NCBI GenBank assembly: GCA_016790425.1
Contig: JAEUPF010000172.1
Span: 1 to 53,736, forward strand
Direction: 5' to 3'
Source: Rubrivivax sp.
Lineage (GTDB): Bacteria > Pseudomonadota > Gammaproteobacteria > Burkholderiales > Burkholderiaceae_C
DNA length: 53,736 bases
Numbering within the stretch: position 1 is the first letter of the stretch; each line of letters starts with the position of its first letter. Of the stretch, positions 35,564 to 46,855 are shown in pieces. A program made the translations under genes and the position numbers. Under the pieces are notes generated by a model. It did no database searches. It was not told the origin of the DNA and saw nothing but the letters and a program-made list of their open reading frames with translations.

Positions 35564-36925
35564 CTAGAGCGCTTCGATGATCTCGCGCCGCTTGCGCTGG
35601 TATTCCTCTTCGGTGATGAGGTTCGCTTCGCGCAGCCGGCGCAGCGTGCGCAGGCGGTTCTCCTGCTCTTCGAGGTAGGCTGCGTCGCGTACGCGTGGCG
35701 GTGCCGCACGGGCCGCGGCCGCTGGTGCGCTGGCGGCAGCGGCCGCCGCCGGCGCAGGACCGCGCGCGGCGCTCGCGCCCACTGCCGCGGCCGATGCGGC
35801 CGATGCGGCTGATGCGGCCGATGCCGCTGCTGCGGCCGATGCCGCTGCTGCGGCCGATGCCGCCGCCGCGGGTGGCGCGGCTGCCAGCGCAGCAGCCGCT
35901 GCCCCCGCGTCCTCGAGCGCGCCGCTCAACGCCCGCTGCAGCCACAGGTTCACCGCCTGCACGCCCGGCGCCGGCGCCGCGGCGCCCGCGGCCAGCCCCA
36001 CCAGCACGCCCGAGCGCAACTGCGAACGCTGCTGCGCCTCGTCGGCGGCGAGCAGGTCGACGATGGCAGTGGCCGGCTGCCGGGCGCCGCGGTAGCCCAT
36101 CGCCAGCGCCGGGCGCCCCGCTTCCGGTGCTGCCACGCCGAGTGCCAGGCGCGCGAGCGGCGTTGCCGCGGCGCCGCCGCCGCCGCCGAAGCCGGCCGCC
36201 CAGCCCGACTCGATGCTCAGCTTGGCGGCCGTGACCACAGCGACGAGCGAGGCGCCGGCGAGCGCACGCGCGCCGACGAAGCGCGCCGGAACCGTGAACG
36301 AGACCGTGCGGCCGCGCACGCGCACGTCGGTGGCGAAGAAGATCTCGGCGTCGATGACGGCGTCGACATCGGTGCCGGCTGGGGCGCCGCCGTCGGTCAG
36401 CGCGTCGCGCAACTGGCGGCGCATCAGTTCGGGCCGGGGCGTCAGCACGATCGCCCGCTCCCACGCGTGCGCCGCGTCGGCGCGGGCGCGCCGCCCCGGC
36501 AGCAGCGCCGTGTGCCCGGAGCCGGGAACGCGGTCGAGGTCGAGGTAGATGTCGAGGTTGAAAGCGTAGAAGCCGCGCCGCGCGAACAGCGACAGGTCCT
36601 CGTTGCCGAGCAGGCCCGACTTCACCTGCGCCGGGTCGCGCACCGCGTTGCCGAAGGTGGCTTCGAAGCGCAGGCGGTCGCCCTCGTCGAACACGCTCAG
36701 CGCGCGCAGGTCGAGGTCGCCGGGCTCGACGATCGGCTCGCGCGGAGGCACGAGCGAGCCGTCGCCGCTGTCGTCGCCCGCGGCGTCGCTTATCTGGAGC
36801 AATGGCGTTGTCTGCGCGAGGGCCGGCAGCGGCGCCACCAGCGCCATCAGCACCATGAGCAAGAACAGCGGGAACAGCGTCGCAAGTGCCCGGCGATGCA
36901 CCGCGGCGAGGGTTCGGTTCTTCAT
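35564..36925 (-). CDS. Exported glucodextranase-C-like protein with C-terminal SHOCT domain
   Basis: The 453-residue protein has a signal peptide (1-37, ending PLPALA/Q). Residues about 45-240 resemble the C-terminal module of glucodextranase: DAAGDDSGDGSLVPPREPI, DLDLRALSVFDEGDRLRFE, GFYAFNLDIYLDLD and AWERAIVLTPRPE. A long Ala/Ser linker (about 339-408) built by 9-bp repeats follows. A SHOCT-like motif ends the protein (415-453, ANLITEEEYQRKRREIIEAL). SHOCT domains are usually on oligomerising or membrane-linked proteins; here it would be extracytoplasmic. It is the last gene of the leftward alpha-glucan locus. The start at 36925 fits the signal peptide. Family assignment is by visible motifs only. 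Confidence 0.78.
   Translation of the reverse strand: MKNRTLAAVHRRALATLFPLFLLMVLMALVAPLPALAQTTPLLQISDAAGDDSGDGSLVPPREPIVEPGDLDLRALSVFDEGDRLRFEATFGNAVRDPAQVKSGLLGNEDLSLFARRGFYAFNLDIYLDLDRVPGSGHTALLPGRRARADAAHAWERAIVLTPRPELMRRQLRDALTDGGAPAGTDVDAVIDAEIFFATDVRVRGRTVSFTVPARFVGARALAGASLVAVVTAAKLSIESGWAAGFGGGGGAAATPLARLALGVAAPEAGRPALAMGYRGARQPATAIVDLLAADEAQQRSQLRSGVLVGLAAGAAAPAPGVQAVNLWLQRALSGALEDAGAAAAALAAAPPAAAASAAAAASAAAAASAASAASAASAAAVGASAARGPAPAAAAAASAPAAAARAAPPRVRDAAYLEEQENRLRTLRRLREANLITEEEYQRKRREIIEAL
35785..35856. repeat. 9-bp tandem repeat coding for the Ala/Ser linker
   Basis: Eight 9-base units, alternating GCGGCCGAT and GCCGCTGCT types, encode Ala-Ser-Ala/Ala-Ala-Ala runs on the minus strand inside the linker between the glucan-binding-like part and the SHOCT motif. 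Confidence 0.82.
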
Positions 36926-37067
36926 CGGCTGGGGTCCGGACAGGAGCGGCGAAGGGTAAGGCAAGGAGGGCCCGCATCCGCTGTGAACGGATGGGGCCCT
37001 GCGGGCTCGACCGGGTCGGAACGGGGCCCGCTCGTGCGAGTGAGGGCGGCCGTGCGCCGCCCGCGCC

Positions 37068-38867
37068 TCAGAAGATCGCCTTCACGAACGCCTTCAGGCG
37101 GTACTGCTTGATGCTCGAGCGCGTGCCGGTCTCGCCCGGGTCGCCGTCGCCGCTGATCCACTGCGTCAGCAGGCCCGTCTCGAAGCCGGCGAGGTTGTAC
37201 GCCAGGCGCACACCGGTGATGCTCTTCTCGTTGTCGATGTTGAGCGCCGCGGTGCGGATGTCGCGCGTGTAGCGGCCGTAGGACAGCGAGCCGTAGAGGT
37301 CACCGAAGAGCTGGTTGCCGGCGGTGAGCGTGTAGCCGCTGTCGCGCGTCTCGCGGTCGTCGGCGGCGCTGACGGCGGAGTACTTGTTCTTGTCGAGCAC
37401 GCGCTTGACCTTGGCGCCCAGTTCGATGCCGCCCATGGCCGGAACGACATAGCCGATCTTGAACACGCCGATGTTCGTGCGGCGGTCGTTGCTGGTGGCG
37501 AAGTAGTTCGCCAGCGCGCTCGTGATGGCCTGGCGGTTGTAGTTGTAGCCGATGCGTGTCAGCTCCAGCGACATCGGGATCTTCGCCACCTCGTAGTTGA
37601 CGAGCACGGTGTGGCCCTTCCAGCCCTGCACCGACTCGGCGGGCGCTTCGTCGAAGTCCATGAAGTCGTTGTCGACCAGGCCGTTGGCGCCGGGTGCGAG
37701 CCCGCTGTCGCTGCGGCAGACGCCGCCGCCGCTGACGAAGCACTTGGCCGACGAAGGCGCCTGCTGGTAGTCCTTGGCCGCGCCACCGAGCCAGATCGAC
37801 TGGCCCCAGCGGTGCCAGGCCGCCTCGGAGCCTTCGGTCAGCAGCACGTCCACCTCGCGGCGCGAGGCGGTGTTGCTGTAGAAGCCGGCGCCGATGTTGA
37901 AGTACTGGTAGTTGACCGACAGGCCCGCCACCGGCAGTGAAGCGAACGCCGCGTCGAGCTTGATCGCCTTGCCGCGCACGTCGGACTTCGGCGAGTTGAT
38001 CCACGGCTGGTCGAACAGCGGCGCCTTGTACGTCGAGCCGTAGAGCGCGCCCTTGAGGTCGATGCCGGCGACGGTGCCTTCGCCCTTGAGCATCGCGACC
38101 TGGCTCTTGGCGAAGGTGCGGCTGGAACGCCCGTTGAGGTCGGTGCCGTCGGTGTCGTCGAGGATGCGGTCGTTGAAGAGCTGGTAGCTGGTGGCCAGCT
38201 TCACCGGGCCGAGCGTGCCCTTCAGCTGGCCGATGTAGACCGCTTCGTTGTACTGCGTCTCGTCGCTGCTGCAGCAGGCGGCGCCCTGGCCGTAGTTGTT
38301 CTGCAGGTAGTTGGGCAGCGACAGGCGGGCGAACTCCCAGCTCGCGCCGGCCAGCGGCAGCGGCCCCTTGAAGTACAGGCCGTTGTAGTTGTCGCGGTCG
38401 ATGTAGCGCACCACGCCGACCGTGAAGGGGTCGAACTGGCCCCAGTCGCTGCTGCCGATGAGCGCCTGGTCGAGCCACTTGTAGCCGGGGGTCAGCAGCA
38501 CGTAGGCCCCGCGCAGCTTCATGAACTTGCTCTGCGTGGGCCGCGCGTTGGTGTCGGTGAAGCCTTCGTTGTTGGCGAAGCCGAAGTTGGTCCAGTAGGA
38601 AGCGGAGCTGCGGCTTTGCAGCCGCACGCCGGCTTCGACCTGGCGCGAGATGGTGGCCTTGATGCGCAGCTCGAACTCGGTCCACTGGCCCTGGTCGGAG
38701 CCGGTGGCCGTGTCGGCGCTGCTGTCGCTGGCGCGGCGCTGGTCGCCGTCGAGGAACTTGATGTAGATGTTCGAGCCGCTGAAGTCGAGCTTCTGCGCCA
38801 TGGCGCCGCTGGCGGCCAGGGCCAGCATCGCCGCGGCGGCGAGGGGCTTGAGAGCTTGGGGTTTCAT
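37068..38867 (-). CDS. Outer-membrane beta-barrel protein of the alpha-glucan locus
   Basis: The 599-residue protein has a clear signal peptide (MKPQALKPLAAAAMLALAAS, cleavage after AMA/Q) and alternating amphipathic strands rich in Tyr, Gly and Asn. The last residue is Phe (AFVKAIF), the typical outer-membrane barrel ending. It shows no plug or TonB box. Between the two glucodextranase-C-like genes it is a good candidate for a porin for maltodextrins, replacing LamB. I do not recognise LamB sequence motifs. The family could not be named. A GGGCGGC/GCCGCCC hairpin lies just behind its stop (37044-37062). The 142-base gap to the next gene holds nothing else obvious. Confidence 0.72.
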   Translation of the reverse strand: MKPQALKPLAAAAMLALAASGAMAQKLDFSGSNIYIKFLDGDQRRASDSSADTATGSDQGQWTEFELRIKATISRQVEAGVRLQSRSSASYWTNFGFANNEGFTDTNARPTQSKFMKLRGAYVLLTPGYKWLDQALIGSSDWGQFDPFTVGVVRYIDRDNYNGLYFKGPLPLAGASWEFARLSLPNYLQNNYGQGAACCSSDETQYNEAVYIGQLKGTLGPVKLATSYQLFNDRILDDTDGTDLNGRSSRTFAKSQVAMLKGEGTVAGIDLKGALYGSTYKAPLFDQPWINSPKSDVRGKAIKLDAAFASLPVAGLSVNYQYFNIGAGFYSNTASRREVDVLLTEGSEAAWHRWGQSIWLGGAAKDYQQAPSSAKCFVSGGGVCRSDSGLAPGANGLVDNDFMDFDEAPAESVQGWKGHTVLVNYEVAKIPMSLELTRIGYNYNRQAITSALANYFATSNDRRTNIGVFKIGYVVPAMGGIELGAKVKRVLDKNKYSAVSAADDRETRDSGYTLTAGNQLFGDLYGSLSYGRYTRDIRTAALNIDNEKSITGVRLAYNLAGFETGLLTQWISGDGDPGETGTRSSIKQYRLKAFVKAIF

Positions 38868-38910
38868 GGTTCTCCTCGGTCGTGTCGTGGTTTGGGATCT
38901 GCTTGCGAAC

Positions 38911-39702
38911 TCACTTGCGGACCATCTTCAGCATGGCCATCTTCTTGCTTTCGCCGTTGGGGCCGCACTCGTAGGCCAGCATCTCGGCCTGCTTGGCGTC
39001 GGCGCCGTCGAGCACGTCCATCACGTGCGGGTCGCAGTCGCCGTCGTTGCCGCCGCCGAAGCGGTGCTGGCCCTCGTACTCGTTGACCTTGCGCGTCAGG
39101 AAGTCGGTGGCGGCCGGGAAGCCCTCGTTGGACTGCATCACCACCTGGTAGCCCCAGCCGTCGACGTTGCCGTCGCCGCCGAGGTCGGCCAGCGGGATCG
39201 AGCCGGTGATGGTGCGGCCGCGGCCGCGCGTGAGGTTGGGCACCAGCACGTCCTTGGCCAGCGCGCCGAGCTTGGCGTCGGCCTCGCTGGTGACGCGCGC
39301 CTTCTTCTGCGGCGACAGCACGATCACCTTGTTCCACTCGTGCCCGGGCGCGAACTTCACGTTCAGGCCGGTCCACGTGTCGGCGCGGCCGCCGGGGGCG
39401 CCGGTCTTGACGAAGACGAAGATCATCTGCACCGCGAAGCCCCCGCCCATGCCCCACGGGTCTTCGAGGTTGGAGGCGACGTCGACCGAGAAGTCGACGT
39501 TCGCGCCGCTCTTGACGGCGCTGAACTTGACGATGTCGAACGAGCCGCTCTTGTAGACGCCGTCGGTGGGGTAGGTGTAGTTGCCAGGCCCCTTGTCGTC
39601 GCCGCGCGGGTCGGTGAACTCGACGGCGCCGGCATGGGCGCCGACGAGCGCCAGGGCGGCCGCCGCCGCCAGCGTGCGCAGGATGGGTTTGACGCGATTC
39701 AT
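38911..39702 (-). CDS. Exported glucodextranase C-terminal-domain-like protein
   Basis: The 263-residue protein has a signal peptide (RTLAAAAALALVGAHAGA) and then almost entirely one module: VEFTDPRGDDKGPGNYTYPT, GSFDIVKFSAVKSGANVDFS, EDPWGMGGGFAVQMIFVFV and HEWNKVIVLSPQKKARV. These match the pattern of the module at the C-terminus of glucodextranases and some pullulanases, thought to bind glucan or the cell surface. No catalytic domain is attached. GAGGAG precedes the ATG. It lies between malG and the barrel gene, suggesting periplasmic or surface glucan capture. Confidence 0.85.
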   Translation of the reverse strand: MNRVKPILRTLAAAAALALVGAHAGAVEFTDPRGDDKGPGNYTYPTDGVYKSGSFDIVKFSAVKSGANVDFSVDVASNLEDPWGMGGGFAVQMIFVFVKTGAPGGRADTWTGLNVKFAPGHEWNKVIVLSPQKKARVTSEADAKLGALAKDVLVPNLTRGRGRTITGSIPLADLGGDGNVDGWGYQVVMQSNEGFPAATDFLTRKVNEYEGQHRFGGGNDGDCDPHVMDVLDGADAKQAEMLAYECGPNGESKKMAMLKMVRK

Positions 39703-39773
39703 GCGGGTTCTCCTCTGGGTGGGTCTTCGGGAAAGGGACGTGAAGCGCGGCGCAGCCCTCTGAGGAGCGCGTC

Positions 39774-40646
39774 TCACTTGACGCTGCCGGCGGTGAGGCC
39801 GGACACCAGGTACTTCTGCAAGAACATGAACAGGATCACCACGGGCAGCGAGACGATCACCGAACCGGCGGCGAAGAAGCCCCATTGCGAGCTGAAGCCG
39901 CCGACGAAGAAGCGCAGCCCCACGGGCGCGGTGTAGTTGGCCTCGCTCTCCATGAACACCGAAGCGAGGATGAACTCGTTCCACGCTGTCATGAACGAGA
40001 ACAGCGCCGTGATGGCGATCGCCGGCTTGGCCAGCGGCAGGATGATGCGCAGGAAGATCGTCTGCGCGCTGGCGCCGTCGATGCGGGCGCTCTCCTCGAT
40101 GTCGATGGGGATGGTGTCGAAGTAGCCCTTCAGCATCCAGACGCTGAAGGGGATCGCGGTGGTGGCGTAGACGATCACCAGGCCGAGGAAGTTGTTGCCC
40201 AGCCCCAGCCACTTGACGATGATGATGAACAGCGGGATCAGCATCAGCGTGCCCGGGAACATCTGCGACACGAGGAAGGCGAGCATGCCGCCCTCGCGCC
40301 CGGGGAAGCGGAAGCGGCTGAAGGCGTAGGCGGCGGTGCAGGCGAGGAAGACGCCCAGCAGCGTCGTCAGCGCCGACACGACGACGCTGTTGAGCAGCCA
40401 GCGGCCGAACGGCTGCTCGGTCAGCACGTCGGTGAAGTTGCGCAGCGACAGGTGCGCCGGCCACGGCAGGATGCCGCGCGCGCGCTCGAGGAAGCCGGGA
40501 TCCTTCGGCAGGTCCACCAGGCCCACGCTCTGCTGCCCGGAGAAGGCCAGCGCCAGCACCCACAGCACCGGGTACACGGTGAGCAGCGTGAAGCTGATCA
40601 GCGCGGCGTGCAGCCACAGCGGGTTCTTCGGCCGACCGAGCGCCAT
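39774..40646 (-). CDS. malG: Maltose/maltodextrin-type ABC transporter permease (MalG-like)
   Basis: The 290-residue inner-membrane protein has six spans and the coupling loop EESARIDGASAQTIFLRIIL (184-203), which meets the ATPase. TAAYAFSRFRFPGREG and MTAWNEFILASVFM are typical of MalG permeases, and the C-terminus GLTAGSVK matches the MalG tail that reaches toward the ATPase. It pairs with the upstream MalF-like protein, 15 bases away. Confidence 0.92.
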   Translation of the reverse strand: MALGRPKNPLWLHAALISFTLLTVYPVLWVLALAFSGQQSVGLVDLPKDPGFLERARGILPWPAHLSLRNFTDVLTEQPFGRWLLNSVVVSALTTLLGVFLACTAAYAFSRFRFPGREGGMLAFLVSQMFPGTLMLIPLFIIIVKWLGLGNNFLGLVIVYATTAIPFSVWMLKGYFDTIPIDIEESARIDGASAQTIFLRIILPLAKPAIAITALFSFMTAWNEFILASVFMESEANYTAPVGLRFFVGGFSSQWGFFAAGSVIVSLPVVILFMFLQKYLVSGLTAGSVK

Positions 40647-40661
40647 CTCTCGCTTCGCTCC

Positions 40662-42680
40662 TCAGTAGCTCTCCGTGGCGCGCGTGAGGCGGGTCTGGAA
40701 GTACCCGTACACGAGCAGGATTACGAAGATCACCGTCGAGTAGGCCGCAGCGTAGGCGTACTGATATTGCTCGAACGCAATCTTGTACGCCTTCGTCACC
40801 AGGATCTCGTTGGCGCCGCCCGGCTCGCCGCCGGAGACGAGGAAGATGATGTTGAACATGTTGAAGGTCCACACCACCGAGATCACGACCGCCGGCACCA
40901 GAGTGGGGCGAAGCAGGGGCAGCGTGATGCGCCGGAACTGCTGCCAGCGGCTGGCCCCTTCGACATCGGCCGCCTCGTACATGTCGCGCGGGATCGACTG
41001 CAGCGCGCCGAGGATGACGACCATCATGAACGGAAAACTGAGCCAGCCGTTGGTGACCAGGCCGGTCATGAACGAGCTGACGACGCCGTCGAACCAGCGC
41101 ACCGGCGCGAAGCCGAACATCTGCAAGGCCTGGTTGATGACGCCGAACTGCGGGTGGAACATGCCGCGCCAGACCAGCGCGGTGATGTAGTTCGGGATCG
41201 CCCACGGCAGGATCAGCAGCACGCGGTAGACCGTCTTGCCGCGCAGGCCCTCGGTGTTCAGCGCCAGCGCGAGCAGGAAGCCGAAGCTGACCCCGACGGT
41301 GACGTTGGTGACCGTCCAGATCACCGTCACCGCCAGCGTCCAGTAGAAGTTCTGGTAGTTGACGACGGTGCCTTCGGCGCTCGTCCGGACGATCTCGAAG
41401 TCGCCGAGGATGTTGACGAAGTTCGCCAGGCCGACCCAGCGGTCGCGGAAGGGCAGGTTCTCGTTGAACAGCGTCGTGTCGGTGAACGCGAGCGTGATGC
41501 CGTAGAAGAAAGGGAAGAAGACGAGCACCAGCATGCCCAGCATCGCCGGCGCCACGTAGGCGTAGGCGAGCCGGTTCGCGCGCACGGCGCGCGCGCTGCG
41601 CGCGGCCAGGCCCTGCACGAAGAAAAGCAGCACCGCCAGACCGACGACGTCGATGGCGGCGAAGGCCTGCGTCAGGAACGAGCGGTGCGAGGCCGCGGCG
41701 CGATTGGCCTTGTCGAGCCGCCGCCCCTCGGGCGAGACGAGGCGCAGCGGCCGGCCGTAGGCGTCGGTGTCCCAGGCGCTGGCGCTGTCGCGGACGGAAG
41801 CGCCGGCGGCTTCCGGGGCCGGGGCGGCCGGCGCGGCCGGGAGGGCGGGGGCGGCGGCACCGGCCGGCGCGCCGCTGCCCAGGTACGTGGCGGCGGCAGC
41901 GGCCTGCAGCGCCGCCACGGCGCCGTCGCCGGCGGCGGTGTCGGCGGCCATGCGGGCCAGCTGCTGTTGCTGGAACCACGCCGCGCCGGCCAGCAGCAGC
42001 GCCACCGCGATGCCGCGCCCGACGTCGAAGCGCCGCGCGCTGGCCGGCGGCAGCAGCGCGCCAAGCACGAGCGCGGCGGCGAGCAGCGCGACCGCCAGCG
42101 GCCACGGCGACGGAGCGGCGGAATCGGCCTGGCCGGCAGCGGCGAGCTCGGCACCGGCCAGCCGCAGCCGCGCCTGCACCATGCCTTCGATGCCGTCTGC
42201 GGCGCGCAGCGGCACGCTGACGACGAGATCGCCGGCGGCGTTCCTGGGGTGCTCCACGCGCATCGTCTTCTTGCGCGGCGCGCCCTCGGCGGTGTTGGTC
42301 TCGTCGGCCGCTCGCAGCTCCTGCGCCAGGTCGAACAGCGCCTTCTCCTCGCGCTTCAGGGCGCGCGGCGCGTCGTCGGCGGCCACGGTGGAGGCGCGCA
42401 GCTCGCGCCCGGCGATGACGCGTACCTCGCGCAGCGAGCCGTGCTCGCGCTGCCACAGGGCCAGCCGCCGGGCCGTTGCGGCCTCGTCGGCGCCGGCCAG
42501 CGAGGCGGCCACCGCGTTGGCCAGCAGCATCGCCGCGCGTTCGCGCTGGCCGGCAGCGAGGTCGCCGGCAACGCTCGCATGCAGCCAGCCGCTGGCGGCC
42601 AGCACGACGGACAGCGCCACGGCGAGGCCGAGCGGCAGCGGCGTTGCCAGGCGCGAACCGAGGCGCTTCAACCAGTCCAT
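40662..42680 (-). CDS. malF: MalF-like ABC permease with a large extra N-terminal membrane module
   Basis: The 672-residue protein is far longer than a usual sugar permease of about 300. The C-terminal half (from about 365) is a standard MalF-type permease: YAYVAPAMLGMLVLVFFPFF, ILPWAIPNYITALVWRGMF and coupling loop EAADVEGASRWQQFRRITL. The first 360 residues are extra: a span at about 14-34, a 150-residue extracytoplasmic part (LREVRVIAGRELR, VVSVPLRAADGIEGMVQARL) reminiscent of sensor input domains, two spans at about 193-212 and 222-238, an Ala/Pro-rich stretch and another span at about 339-358. No frameshift is needed, and one ATG starts the whole. The P2 insertion of E. coli MalF lies elsewhere, between later spans. 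Confidence 0.9.
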   Translation of the reverse strand: MDWLKRLGSRLATPLPLGLAVALSVVLAASGWLHASVAGDLAAGQRERAAMLLANAVAASLAGADEAATARRLALWQREHGSLREVRVIAGRELRASTVAADDAPRALKREEKALFDLAQELRAADETNTAEGAPRKKTMRVEHPRNAAGDLVVSVPLRAADGIEGMVQARLRLAGAELAAAGQADSAAPSPWPLAVALLAAALVLGALLPPASARRFDVGRGIAVALLLAGAAWFQQQQLARMAADTAAGDGAVAALQAAAAATYLGSGAPAGAAAPALPAAPAAPAPEAAGASVRDSASAWDTDAYGRPLRLVSPEGRRLDKANRAAASHRSFLTQAFAAIDVVGLAVLLFFVQGLAARSARAVRANRLAYAYVAPAMLGMLVLVFFPFFYGITLAFTDTTLFNENLPFRDRWVGLANFVNILGDFEIVRTSAEGTVVNYQNFYWTLAVTVIWTVTNVTVGVSFGFLLALALNTEGLRGKTVYRVLLILPWAIPNYITALVWRGMFHPQFGVINQALQMFGFAPVRWFDGVVSSFMTGLVTNGWLSFPFMMVVILGALQSIPRDMYEAADVEGASRWQQFRRITLPLLRPTLVPAVVISVVWTFNMFNIIFLVSGGEPGGANEILVTKAYKIAFEQYQYAYAAAYSTVIFVILLVYGYFQTRLTRATESY

Positions 42681-42748
42681 CGCTGCAGCGCAGGGTTGGC
42701 CGGTGTCTCGCGCTCAGGCGGCGTGATCCGACCCGCCCTCGGCCCGCC

Positions 42749-44014
42749 TCACTTGCCCCGGCGCAGGGCGGCGACGCTTTCCTGCACGCTGCCGGCTGCT
42801 TCCTTCAGTGCGGCCTCGACGCTGGCGTTGCCCTTCACGATCTTGTTCATCGCCGTCGTCGCGGGCGACCACACCATCGTCATCTCCGGGCGGTTGGGCA
42901 TCGGCTCGGCGTTCTCCAACTGGGCGCGAAACGCCTGCAGCACGGGATCGCCGCTGACCTTCGGGTTGGCGTACACGGCCTTGTTGGTGTGCAGCTGCCG
43001 GCCCTCGAGCGCCAGCACCAAGCCCGCTTCCTCGCCGACGAGGTAGCGCGCGAAGTCGTAGGCCACCTCCTTGTTCGCCGAGCTGGCCGCGACGTAGGCA
43101 CCCTCGATCGTCATCCACGGGCGCAGCGGCTTCTTCGTCGCGTCGAGCACCGGCAGCGGCGCGAAGCCGACGTTGATCTTCTTGTCGATGTCGCCGACGA
43201 ACCATGGCCCGTTGATGACCATCGCCGCCTTGCCCTCGTTGAACATCGAGGCGATCAGCGCCTCGCTCGGCTCGGCGGGCAGCACGCCGTCCTTGGACCA
43301 CTTCATCATCTGGTTGAGCGAGGCCACGTTGGCCGGGCTGTCGAGGACCAGCTTGCCGTCCTTGTCGAACACGGCGCCGCCGAAGGCGTTCATCAGCGCC
43401 GAGTGGAAGTAGAAGTTCGTGTACCAGTAAGCCAGCCCGTAGCGGCCGCTGGCGGCGTTGGTGAGCGACTTGGCCAGCTTCACCATCTCGTCGGTCGTCT
43501 TCGGCGGCGCCTTGACGAGGTCCTTGTTGTAGATGAGCGTGGGCATCTTGTAGTTGATCGGCAGCCCCCACACGCCGCCCTTGTAGGTCATTGCCGCCAG
43601 CATGCCGGGCAGCAGGCTGTCGCGCGTGGGCTTGTCGAGGAAGAAGTCGATCGGCTCGACGGTCTTGCCGGCCTCGATCCAGCCGCCCAGGCGGTCCTGC
43701 GCGTAGATGAAGACATCAGGGCCCTTGCCGCGCGGCACCGCGGCGCTGATCTTGTCGGCGTAGGCGTCGTACGGGATCGCCAGCGTCGTCACCTTGAAGC
43801 CCTTGGCGGCGGGCGTCTTCGCGAAGTTGTCGACCACCTTCTCGAACGCGGCCTTCTCGGCGGCGCGGTAGGCGTGCCAGACGACGAGTTCCTTGGGCCC
43901 CGCCTGCGCGAAGGCGCTGCCGGCGCCGGCGAGCAGGCCCGCGGCGACCGCCAGGCCGAGCGCGAGGCGCCGGGGGCGCGAGAGGCCAAAGGCAAGGTAG
44001 GCGGGCTTGTTCAT
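42749..44014 (-). CDS. malE: Maltose/maltodextrin-binding protein (MalE-like)
   Basis: The 421-residue periplasmic protein has a signal peptide (SRPRRLALGLAVAAGLLAGA, cleavage near AFA/Q at 36) and a family 1 sugar-binding fold: KELVVWHAYRAAEKAAFEKV, PDVFIYAQDRLGGW, GVWGLPINYKMPTLIYNKDL, EGKAAMVINGPWFV. Aromatic residues in these motifs normally stack on glucosyl units. Two ATGs lie close (44020, 44014); AGGAG suits 44014 better. It is placed between malK and malF in the leftward operon. Confidence 0.92.
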   Translation of the reverse strand: MNKPAYLAFGLSRPRRLALGLAVAAGLLAGAGSAFAQAGPKELVVWHAYRAAEKAAFEKVVDNFAKTPAAKGFKVTTLAIPYDAYADKISAAVPRGKGPDVFIYAQDRLGGWIEAGKTVEPIDFFLDKPTRDSLLPGMLAAMTYKGGVWGLPINYKMPTLIYNKDLVKAPPKTTDEMVKLAKSLTNAASGRYGLAYWYTNFYFHSALMNAFGGAVFDKDGKLVLDSPANVASLNQMMKWSKDGVLPAEPSEALIASMFNEGKAAMVINGPWFVGDIDKKINVGFAPLPVLDATKKPLRPWMTIEGAYVAASSANKEVAYDFARYLVGEEAGLVLALEGRQLHTNKAVYANPKVSGDPVLQAFRAQLENAEPMPNRPEMTMVWSPATTAMNKIVKGNASVEAALKEAAGSVQESVAALRRGK

Positions 44015-44076
44015 CGTCATCTCTCCTGGCTGGCTTGTTGCGTGGCGGCGGGCAGCGGGCGGTTCGTCGAGGGGCG

Positions 44077-45198
<1,122 letters not shown>

Positions 45199-45223
45199 CG
45201 CCGTCCTTGCGCTCCCGTGTCTG

Positions 45224-46855
45224 TCAGCGATCGGCCGGCACGATGATGCGCACCGACTTCGGCGGCAGCGTCATGCGCAGCCGGCCTTGGCCGACGGTGG
45301 CCGCCTCGCCGCTCAGGCGGTCGCGCGCCGCCGGCGCGGCCCACGCCGGTGGCAAGGCGACATCGGCGGCGAGCGCCTCGTCGTCGCGGTTGGCGAGCAC
45401 GATCACGGCGTCGCCGCTGGCGGCATCGCGGCGCATGAAGGCGAGCACGCGGTCGGCCGGCTGCGTCAGCATCGTGTAGTCGCCGCGGCGCAGGGCCGGG
45501 TGCGCGAGGCGGATGCGGATCAGCCGCCGGTAGTGCTCGCGCATCGCTTCGTCGCGCGGCACGCCGCGGCCGGGCAGGATGTCGCGCCCGCCCCAGGGCA
45601 TGTCGTTGCGGTTGAACGGCCACTCGTGCCCGCCGCGCGCGACCTCTTCGCCGTAGTAGACCACCGGCATGCCGAGCGAGGTCATCTGCAGCGCCACGCA
45701 CAACGCGAAGCGCTGGCGGTCGCCTTGCAGGTTGGCCAGCATCATCGGTTCGTCGTGGCTGGAAAGGTAGTGCGCCAGCACGTACCCGGCGCGCACCTGG
45801 TGCCGGCTGCGCAGGTAGGCGGCGTAGGCCACGCTGCGGCCGCGGCCGGTGACCCAGCCTTCGCAGCTGCCCTTGAAGCTGAAATCGAAGCCGGCGTCGA
45901 CCTCGTCGCGCTGGAAGAAGGCATCGAGCGACTGTGCCGTGCCACCCCAGTCTTCGGCGAGCAGGAAGAACCCGGGGCCGAGCTCGGCGCGCGTGCGCCG
46001 CCGGTGCTCCTGCCAGACCGCGCTTTCCACATGCTTGTAGGTGTCGAGGCGGAAGCCGTCGACGCCGGCGCGGCGGGCGAGCGCGATGTTGGCATCGATG
46101 AGGTGGTCGCGGACCTCGGGCAGGTCGGTGCGGAAGTCGGGCAGGCCGCCGACGGCGCACGTCACCGGGTTGGCGTCGCAGTTGCCTTCGCCCACGCGCA
46201 GCCACGGCACGCCGGCGGCGGTGCGGCGTGCCGTGTAGGCGCTCGTGTAGCCGGCATGGTTGACGACCACGTCGAGCAGGACCTTGATGCCGCGCCGGTG
46301 CGCTTCGTCGACCAGGCGCTTGAGGTCGTCTTCGTTGCCGAAGTGCGGCTCCATCTGCGTGAAGTCGGCGATCCAGTAGCCGTGGAACGGTTCGTGCACG
46401 AAGCTGCCGGCGCCGGGCGCCTGTGCCGGCATCCCGCGCGCCTGTTGCAGCTGCACGGGGTTGATCCACAGCGCGGTCACGCCCAGGCTCTTCAGCTCGT
46501 CGAGCTGCGCCGCGAGGCCCTTCAAGTCGCCGCCGTGCCAGCCGCCGGGATTGCGGCGGTCGACGCCGCGGTTGTTGGCCGGGTCGCCGTCGGCGAAGCG
46601 GTCGATGAGGACGAAGTACAGCACTTCGTCGGCCCAGGTGCGCGAAGCCAGCGGCGGCGCGTCGGCCACTGCCGCGGGCGATGGCTTGTCGGCCGCGCTG
46701 GCCGGCGCCGGGGCGCCGGCGCCCGGCGCCGCGCAAGCGCCCAGCAGCGACAGCACGCCCGGCAGGATGAGCCGCCAAGCCCCGGCGACGATGCCGTGCA
46801 GCGGCAACGACCGCCCGCCGGCGGCCGCCATGCCTGTACCACCGCGCTGGAGCAT
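45224..46855 (-). CDS. GH13 alpha-amylase family lipoprotein
   Basis: From the ATG at 46855 the enzyme has 543 residues (an in-frame GTG at 46867 would add four). A signal with lipobox LLGAC makes it a lipoprotein. All four GH13 regions are present: LLDVVVNH; GFRLDTYKH with nucleophile Asp; FLLAEDW with acid/base Glu; YLSSHDE with the third Asp. Counted from the GTG these catalytic residues are Asp275, Glu305 and Asp372. The short C-terminal beta domain follows. It should cut alpha-1,4-glucans outside the cytoplasm and supply the importer. Exact specificity (amylase, neopullulanase, cyclomaltodextrinase) is open. It is the first gene of the locus. Confidence 0.92.
   Translation of the reverse strand: MLQRGGTGMAAAGGRSLPLHGIVAGAWRLILPGVLSLLGACAAPGAGAPAPASAADKPSPAAVADAPPLASRTWADEVLYFVLIDRFADGDPANNRGVDRRNPGGWHGGDLKGLAAQLDELKSLGVTALWINPVQLQQARGMPAQAPGAGSFVHEPFHGYWIADFTQMEPHFGNEDDLKRLVDEAHRRGIKVLLDVVVNHAGYTSAYTARRTAAGVPWLRVGEGNCDANPVTCAVGGLPDFRTDLPEVRDHLIDANIALARRAGVDGFRLDTYKHVESAVWQEHRRRTRAELGPGFFLLAEDWGGTAQSLDAFFQRDEVDAGFDFSFKGSCEGWVTGRGRSVAYAAYLRSRHQVRAGYVLAHYLSSHDEPMMLANLQGDRQRFALCVALQMTSLGMPVVYYGEEVARGGHEWPFNRNDMPWGGRDILPGRGVPRDEAMREHYRRLIRIRLAHPALRRGDYTMLTQPADRVLAFMRRDAASGDAVIVLANRDDEALAADVALPPAWAAPAARDRLSGEAATVGQGRLRMTLPPKSVRIIVPADR

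What the first reader, a model, noticed from the sequence alone, without database searches (positions are those of the whole stretch)
35564..46855. Eight-gene alpha-glucan locus that combines a Sus-like surface set with a MalEFGK importer
Seen: one leftward run codes for a lipoprotein GH13 enzyme, MalK, MalE, MalF, MalG, a glucodextranase-C-like exported protein, an outer-membrane barrel protein and a second glucodextranase-C-like protein. Known: Bacteroides Sus systems pair surface amylase and glycan-binding proteins with an outer-membrane channel, while proteobacterial mal systems use LamB. Inference: this is a beta-proteobacterial analogue in which the two glucodextranase-C-like proteins act as glucan-capture parts for a non-LamB channel feeding an ABC importer. 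No regulator is nearby.
Basis: partly seen in the sequence, partly recalled or inferred. Interest (0 to 1): 0.75.

Follow-up and report, generated by a model that had tools for sequence, protein, structure and literature searches.

The report
Eight-gene maltodextrin uptake operon, new barrel
A rare and well-conserved set of eight genes in Rubrivivax-like bacteria probably brings starch-derived sugars into the cell through an outer-membrane channel for which no solved relative was found by sequence, with two exported sugar-binding-type proteins and a maltose-type pump that carries an extra sensor-like part.

Summary
In detail: eight leftward genes (GH13, malK, malE, malF, malG, Glucodextran_C protein GDC1, barrel, Glucodextran_C protein GDC2) lie at the stated coordinates. 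They are a unit: 11 of 11 other complete barrel loci keep the same order and strand, and 2 contig-cut loci hold the matching part. Barrel and GDC1 occur in the same genomes (7 of 120 relatives; 2 of 349 of the order). The barrel has no PDB sequence relative and a weak Porin_4 match. Pullulanase, amylase, glucokinase or starch-synthase genes near some other copies support alpha-glucan. 'Sus-like surface set' is weak: no canonical lipobox in GDC1 or GDC2, a plausible one in about 5 of 12 GH13s, no TonB receptor among the eight. The better model resembles Klebsiella Cym or mal: passive channel, glucan binding probably periplasmic, MalEFGK import. Substrate, location and channel function are inferred. 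New variant of a known kind.

The parts
45224..46855 (-). GH13 hydrolase (closest solved chains: alpha-amylases, then neopullulanases and cyclomaltodextrinases), exported; lipobox LGAC in this copy
   Evidence: Pfam Alpha-amylase 7.5e-48 and Malt_amylase_C 1.7e-8; PDB 4e2o 5.1e-64, 5a2b 5.5e-59; lipobox survey; catalytic Asp, Glu, Asp in 12 of 12
44077..45198 (-). MalK-like ABC ATPase
   Evidence: ABC_tran, OB_MalK, TOBE_2
42749..44014 (-). MalE-like solute-binding protein with signal peptide
   Evidence: SBP_bac_1 2e-39; MalE model 1.7e-58, below cut-off; among the nearest solved non-fusion chains 1elj (maltodextrin-binding) and 2zyk
40662..42680 (-). MalF-like permease, 672 aa: core from about residue 365, no P2 loop, four extra N-terminal hydrophobic segments and a periplasmic domain (about residues 35-192) modelled like sensor domains
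39774..40646 (-). MalG-like permease
   Evidence: BPD_transp_1 1e-20; MalG model 4.7e-52, below cut-off
38911..39702 (-). GDC1: exported single-domain Glucodextran_C protein, no lipobox
   Evidence: PF09985 1.6e-56; glucodextranase 1ug9 2.1e-12
37068..38867 (-). Outer-membrane beta-barrel, 599 aa, C-terminal Phe; no solved relative found by sequence
   Evidence: Porin_4 weak, in 6 of 14 members; no NCBIfam match; no meaningful PDB sequence match; beta-barrel by low-confidence model; C-terminal F in 14 of 14
35564..36925 (-). GDC2: exported Glucodextran_C domain, Ala/Pro-rich linker, C-terminal SHOCT tail
   Evidence: PF09985 5.7e-21 and SHOCT 1.4e-6

Best explanation
A co-inherited alpha-glucan oligosaccharide uptake operon. 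Malto-oligosaccharides enter through the dedicated barrel (a passive outer-membrane channel in place of LamB). GDC1 and GDC2 bind the glucan through their Glucodextran_C domains, most likely on the periplasmic side next to the channel, keeping it from leaving and presenting it. The GH13 enzyme trims it. MalE hands the products to MalFGK. The SHOCT tail of GDC2 probably holds it in an oligomer or at the envelope. The sensor-like N-terminal domain of this MalF either takes the place of the missing P2 loop in docking MalE or senses ligand. Shown: gene content, order, conservation, domain calls, the missing P2 loop, the added N-terminal region, no canonical lipobox in GDC1 and GDC2. Inferred: channel function, substrate, side of the membrane, every binding step, the role of the MalF domain.
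For: Same order and strand in 11 of 11 other complete loci and the matching part in 2 of 2 cut loci; barrel, extended MalF and two Glucodextran_C copies in the same 7 of 120 genomes; barrel and GDC1 in the same 2 of 349. Substrate: amylase-type GH13 with all catalytic residues in 12 of 12 and maltodextrin-binding-type MalE; near the operon in other loci: pullulanase (L017, L019), amylase (L017, L021, L023), glucokinase (L019, L023, L024), a nucleotidyltransferase and a starch synthase (L020) (10 chosen neighbours). Glucodextran_C fused to GH13 in 3 of 3 scanned enzymes of the same genus. No LamB in the 7 barrel genomes. Precedent for a passive non-LamB porin: CymA. No canonical lipobox in GDC1 or GDC2.
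Against: No functional data. The window's own flanking genes have no glucan link. PF09985 also sits on a GH53 galactanase (one passage), and one GDC1-like protein is away from glucan genes, so the domain alone does not prove alpha-glucan. In the MalE alignment to maltose-binding protein some sugar contacts appear to differ (my reading with recalled residue numbers). The barrel model is poor (mean pLDDT 54.8). That LamB and barrel never meet is no better than chance (11 and 7 of 120; 0.64 expected). The held genome is 82 % complete.
Confidence: 0.62

Rival explanations
1. Sus-like surface capture: GDC1, GDC2 and the GH13 lipoprotein sit on the outside of the outer membrane and feed glucan into the barrel.
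For: Plausible GH13 lipobox in this window and 4 other loci; Glucodextran_C occurs on exported GH13 enzymes.
Against: No canonical lipobox in GDC1 or GDC2; GH13 lipobox missing or badly placed in 7 of 12 loci; no TonB-dependent receptor among the eight. TonB receptors beside a GDC-tailed amylase do occur in the same genus, in another locus type. Surface export without a lipid anchor was not testable.
Confidence: 0.15
2. The system imports a different glucan or cyclic sugar (cyclodextrin, isomalto- or dextran-type) and the GH13 linearises or cuts it.
For: Glucodextran_C is named for a dextran enzyme; 2zyk (cyclodextrin-binding by recall) is among the nearest solved relatives of MalE and cyclomaltodextrinases among those of GH13.
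Against: The linked enzymes that were identified are amylase and pullulanase; no cyclodextrin-forming or dextran enzyme was seen, but only 10 neighbours were scanned there.
Confidence: 0.17
3. The barrel is a general or structural porin that happens to lie in a glucan import locus.
For: Weak Porin_4 match in 6 of 14; Foldseek gives mixed barrels, no single family.
Against: Barrel linked to the importer in 13 of 13 other loci and not found in 368 of 369 and 347 of 349 sampled genomes, the exceptions being operon carriers.
Confidence: 0.06

Closest known systems
Klebsiella oxytoca Cym system (CymA porin, CymE binding protein)
   Same: Dedicated non-LamB, non-TonB passive outer-membrane channel used with a periplasmic alpha-glucan binding protein (passages; that Cym has a MalFGK-like importer is recalled)
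   Different: The barrel matches no solved chain by sequence (that CymA, 4V3G, is in that file was not checked); no Glucodextran_C proteins mentioned in what I read; extended MalF here
Enterobacterial maltose system (LamB, MalEFGK)
   Same: MalE, MalF, MalG and MalK homologues in one operon
   Different: Barrel is not LamB; no P2 loop in MalF; against LamB mal loci of the same genus MalK 48-52, MalE 30-36, MalF 33-39, MalG 34-35 % identical (4 loci)
Bacteroides Sus system (recalled)
   Same: Glucan-binding-type proteins and a GH13 enzyme with an outer-membrane barrel
   Different: No SusC/TonB receptor, no SusD, no lipidated binding proteins; import by an ABC transporter
TonB receptor plus GDC-tailed GH13 loci of the same genus (G007, G053)
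   Same: Glucodextran_C domain in an alpha-glucan-type locus
   Different: Domain fused to the enzyme; TonB receptor beside it, and in G007 a tryptophan-halogenase-family gene

Membership tests
MalEFGK-type importer | Binding protein, two permeases, one MalK-like ATPase in one gene run | tested here: met
   (NCBIfam maltose models matched below their cut-offs)
MalEFGK-type importer | MalF P2 periplasmic loop (enterobacterial form) | tested here: not met
   181 residues (66-246) of the E. coli chain fall between two matched stretches that are 41 residues apart here; the first stretch is weak. Loop-less MalF is known elsewhere
LamB maltoporin system | LamB-family porin | tested here: not met
   Barrel members do not match PF02264; no LamB in the held, 82 % complete genome
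Sus system | TonB-dependent SusC-type receptor | tested here: not met
   None among the eight proteins
Sus system | Lipoprotein glycan binders | tested here: not met
   No canonical lipobox in 14 GDC1 or 13 GDC2, by inspection
Sus system | Surface exposure | not testable with these tools
   Needs cell experiments
Cym system | CymA-family porin | tested here: inconclusive
   No sequence match to the PDB chain file, presence of CymA in it not checked; fold not decidable from the weak model
Glucodextran_C (PF09985) | Match over Pfam's cut-off | tested here: met
   191.8 and 75.5 bits against 22
GH13 | Catalytic Asp, Glu, Asp in the conserved regions | tested here: met
   Aligned columns hold them in 12 of 12 loci; my earlier patterns alone found region I in 4, II in 12, III in 7 and IV in 12 of 12
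Cache sensor domain (MalF N-terminus) | Sequence match to a Cache family model | tested here: not met
   No Cache hit in 10 of 10 members at E up to 5
Cache sensor domain (MalF N-terminus) | Fold: long helix plus alpha-beta periplasmic domain between two TM helices | tested here: inconclusive
   pLDDT 75-92 per ten-residue block for residues 21-170, whole model 62.3; Foldseek E 0.0066 and above to sensor-kinase and chemoreceptor domains

The most novel reading that the evidence does not exclude
A new outer-membrane glucan channel family works as a trans-envelope complex with two Glucodextran_C proteins, and the importer itself carries a periplasmic sensor (Cache-like) domain in MalF that gates transport or signals glucan status, in place of the P2 loop and of a local regulator.
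Probability: 0.2. Interest if true: 0.75.

Novelty: new variant of a known kind. Interest (0 to 1): 0.5.

Why it matters
Gram-negative cells are known to take up alpha-glucans through LamB, CymA or TonB receptors (CymA; the rest recalled). One genus here holds three locus types (LamB beside malKEFG, TonB receptor beside a GDC-tailed amylase, and this barrel), so the outer-membrane step can be compared in close relatives. If it is a channel, the barrel would be a new specific porin family, and the extended MalF would be a natural test of what the P2 loop does.

Tried and rejected
Sus-like surface display: rejected as the main reading for lack of lipid anchors on GDC1 and GDC2 and of a TonB receptor. 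LamB/barrel mutual exclusion as evidence: dropped, since 11 and 7 of 120 would overlap 0.64 times by chance. Barrel fold: the model (22 strand elements by my count, mean pLDDT 54.8) is too weak for a strand number or a nearest relative. Plasmid copies: none by tblastn. Literature: PF09985, Glucodextran_C or DUF2223 in two papers; searches listed nothing that I recognised as this operon, by titles and abstract starts; nothing further is claimed about absence from print. Papers: PMC8760340, PMC11186346, PMC8447715, PMC5286417 seen as passages; PMC2246101 as passages and sections 9 and 10; all others as search listings. One search's terms were too broad to be of use.

Full report
Observation. Pfam gives GH13, MalK-type ATPase, solute-binding protein, two permeases, two Glucodextran_C proteins and a weak Porin_4 match for the barrel. 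GDC2 also has a C-terminal SHOCT motif.

Is it a unit? The barrel was found in 7 of 120 relatives: 6 of 72 of the same genus (own genome included; genus count read) and one genome of another family. A scan of genome contigs gave 11 loci, all titled MAG: Rubrivivax, Burkholderiaceae, Burkholderiales and one Gammaproteobacteria. After duplicates, 13 loci other than the window remain; 11 hold all eight genes in the same order and strand, and 2 (L018, L020) are cut by contig ends and hold the matching part. Median identities to the window: MalG 89.5, MalE 84.0, MalK 80.9, GDC1 79.1, GH13 73.3, barrel 69.1, MalF 66.6, GDC2 55.4 % (11 to 13 loci each). Pairwise identities of barrel, GDC1, GDC2 and MalF correlate (r 0.51 to 0.79; kinship alone can give this). 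A barrel profile found only the own genome among 369 of the class and 2 of 349 of the order; a GDC1 profile found the same 2 of 349. The genome samples overlap.

Substrate. GH13 is nearest to alpha-amylases, neopullulanases and cyclomaltodextrinases, with catalytic residues in 12 of 12. MalE is related to maltodextrin-binding proteins. Near the operon in other loci lie pullulanase (L017, L019), alpha-amylase (L017, L021, L023), glucokinase (L019, L023, L024), or a nucleotidyltransferase and a starch synthase (L020); I chose these 10 neighbours, so this is not a survey. In the window the flanking genes have no glucan link: GT25, class IV aminotransferase, TPR, HupE, DUF4198. In the held genome other alpha-amylase-family matches lie on contigs C78 (three) and C110 (one).

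Glucodextran_C elsewhere. PF09985 rings in 7 of 398 genomes of the phylum and in 2 of 14 control genomes, Thermus composti and Deinobacterium chartae. Of the 7, two have the operon, one has a standalone GDC1-like protein (53 % identity) among genes that look unrelated, and four have 883-955 aa frames with a GH13-like match close by on the same strand (not scanned with Pfam). In relatives it rings in 31 of 120: the 7 barrel genomes with two copies each, and 24 others, one cut at a contig end (G068) and the rest in frames of 717-1630 aa. Three of these 24 genomes were scanned: all three are GH13 plus Glucodextran_C, and the TonB-like receptors beside two of them were confirmed. Against specificity: the domain is also on a GH53 galactanase (PMC8447715, one passage).

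Barrel. Porin_4 matches 6 of 14 members, OMP_b-brl_3 and CBM_6 one each, weakly; NCBIfam none; PDB sequences none but a chance-level hit to a succinate dehydrogenase (E 0.46). AlphaFold with 12 sequences gave a poor model (pLDDT 54.8); the Foldseek matches listed are outer-membrane barrels of many families. All 14 end in Phe. So: an outer-membrane barrel, channel function inferred.

MalF. A solved E. coli MalF chain matches residues 353-407 (weakly) and 449-666, with 181 chain residues (P2) lacking here. The first about 360 residues hold four hydrophobic regions in 10 of 10 members, one more being called in L022, and a part modelled at pLDDT 75-92 (residues 21-170) as long helix plus alpha-beta domain; the whole model has pLDDT 62.3. 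After MalF itself, the Foldseek hits listed are mostly extracellular domains of sensor kinases and chemoreceptors, best E 0.0066; that these are Cache domains is recalled. Pfam finds no Cache model. Among the matches listed, MalF of this full form occurs in just the 7 barrel genomes of 120. Extra periplasmic parts on Mal permeases are known: P2 in MalF and a 500-residue region in Thermotogales MalG.

Location. GDC1 (14) and GDC2 (13) have signal peptides by inspection and no canonical lipobox. Cys does occur in the first 60 residues of GDC1 in L014 and L018 and of GDC2 in L019, L024 and L025; I judged none canonical, L018 and L024 being the nearest. The GH13 pattern search hit 7 of 12; in two (L017, L021) the Cys is followed by more hydrophobic sequence, so 5 of 12 are plausible lipoproteins. 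This argues for periplasmic or freely secreted proteins, not a conserved surface set. No signal-peptide program was available.

Other routes in the genus. LamB is in 11 of 120 relatives, none with the barrel, which chance also allows; the LamB control rang in E. coli and Bacteroides ihuae, 2 of 14. Five LamB loci were looked at: G024, G063, G050 and G038 of the genus and G103 of another family. In the four of the genus MalK, MalE, MalF and MalG are 48-52, 30-36, 33-39 and 34-35 % identical to those here, a separate transporter line, and an exported protein with a SHOCT tail is adjacent in these four, not seen in G103 (SHOCT by Pfam only in G024). Its tail is 63 and 77 % identical to that of GDC2 in L015 and L021, and 44-59 % to the window's.

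Verdict. A new variant of MalEFGK-based alpha-glucan uptake, with a new barrel family, standalone Glucodextran_C proteins and an unusual MalF; it probably works like Cym or mal rather than Sus.

Noticed in passing
window 40662-42680, residues 1-360: MalF with a sensor-like N-terminal periplasmic domain and no P2 loop; the same full-length form in the 7 barrel genomes of 120.
   Followed up: partly
L079 297-1196; L091 2039-2944; L092 12-662; L093 3478-4212: Exported SHOCT-tailed protein beside four LamB mal loci of the same genus; its tail resembles that of GDC2.
   Followed up: partly
L035 8823-9614: Standalone GDC1-like protein (53 % identity) in another genome of the phylum, next to genes that read as rph, hrcA and grpE (names by eye), away from mal genes.
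   Followed up: partly
L077, L081: GDC-tailed GH13 enzyme beside a TonB-type receptor (both loci) and a tryptophan-halogenase-family gene (tested in L077) in the same genus.
   Followed up: partly
L023 16308-18146: Glucokinase fused to an RpiR-type regulator (HTH_6 and SIS) near the operon.
   Followed up: no
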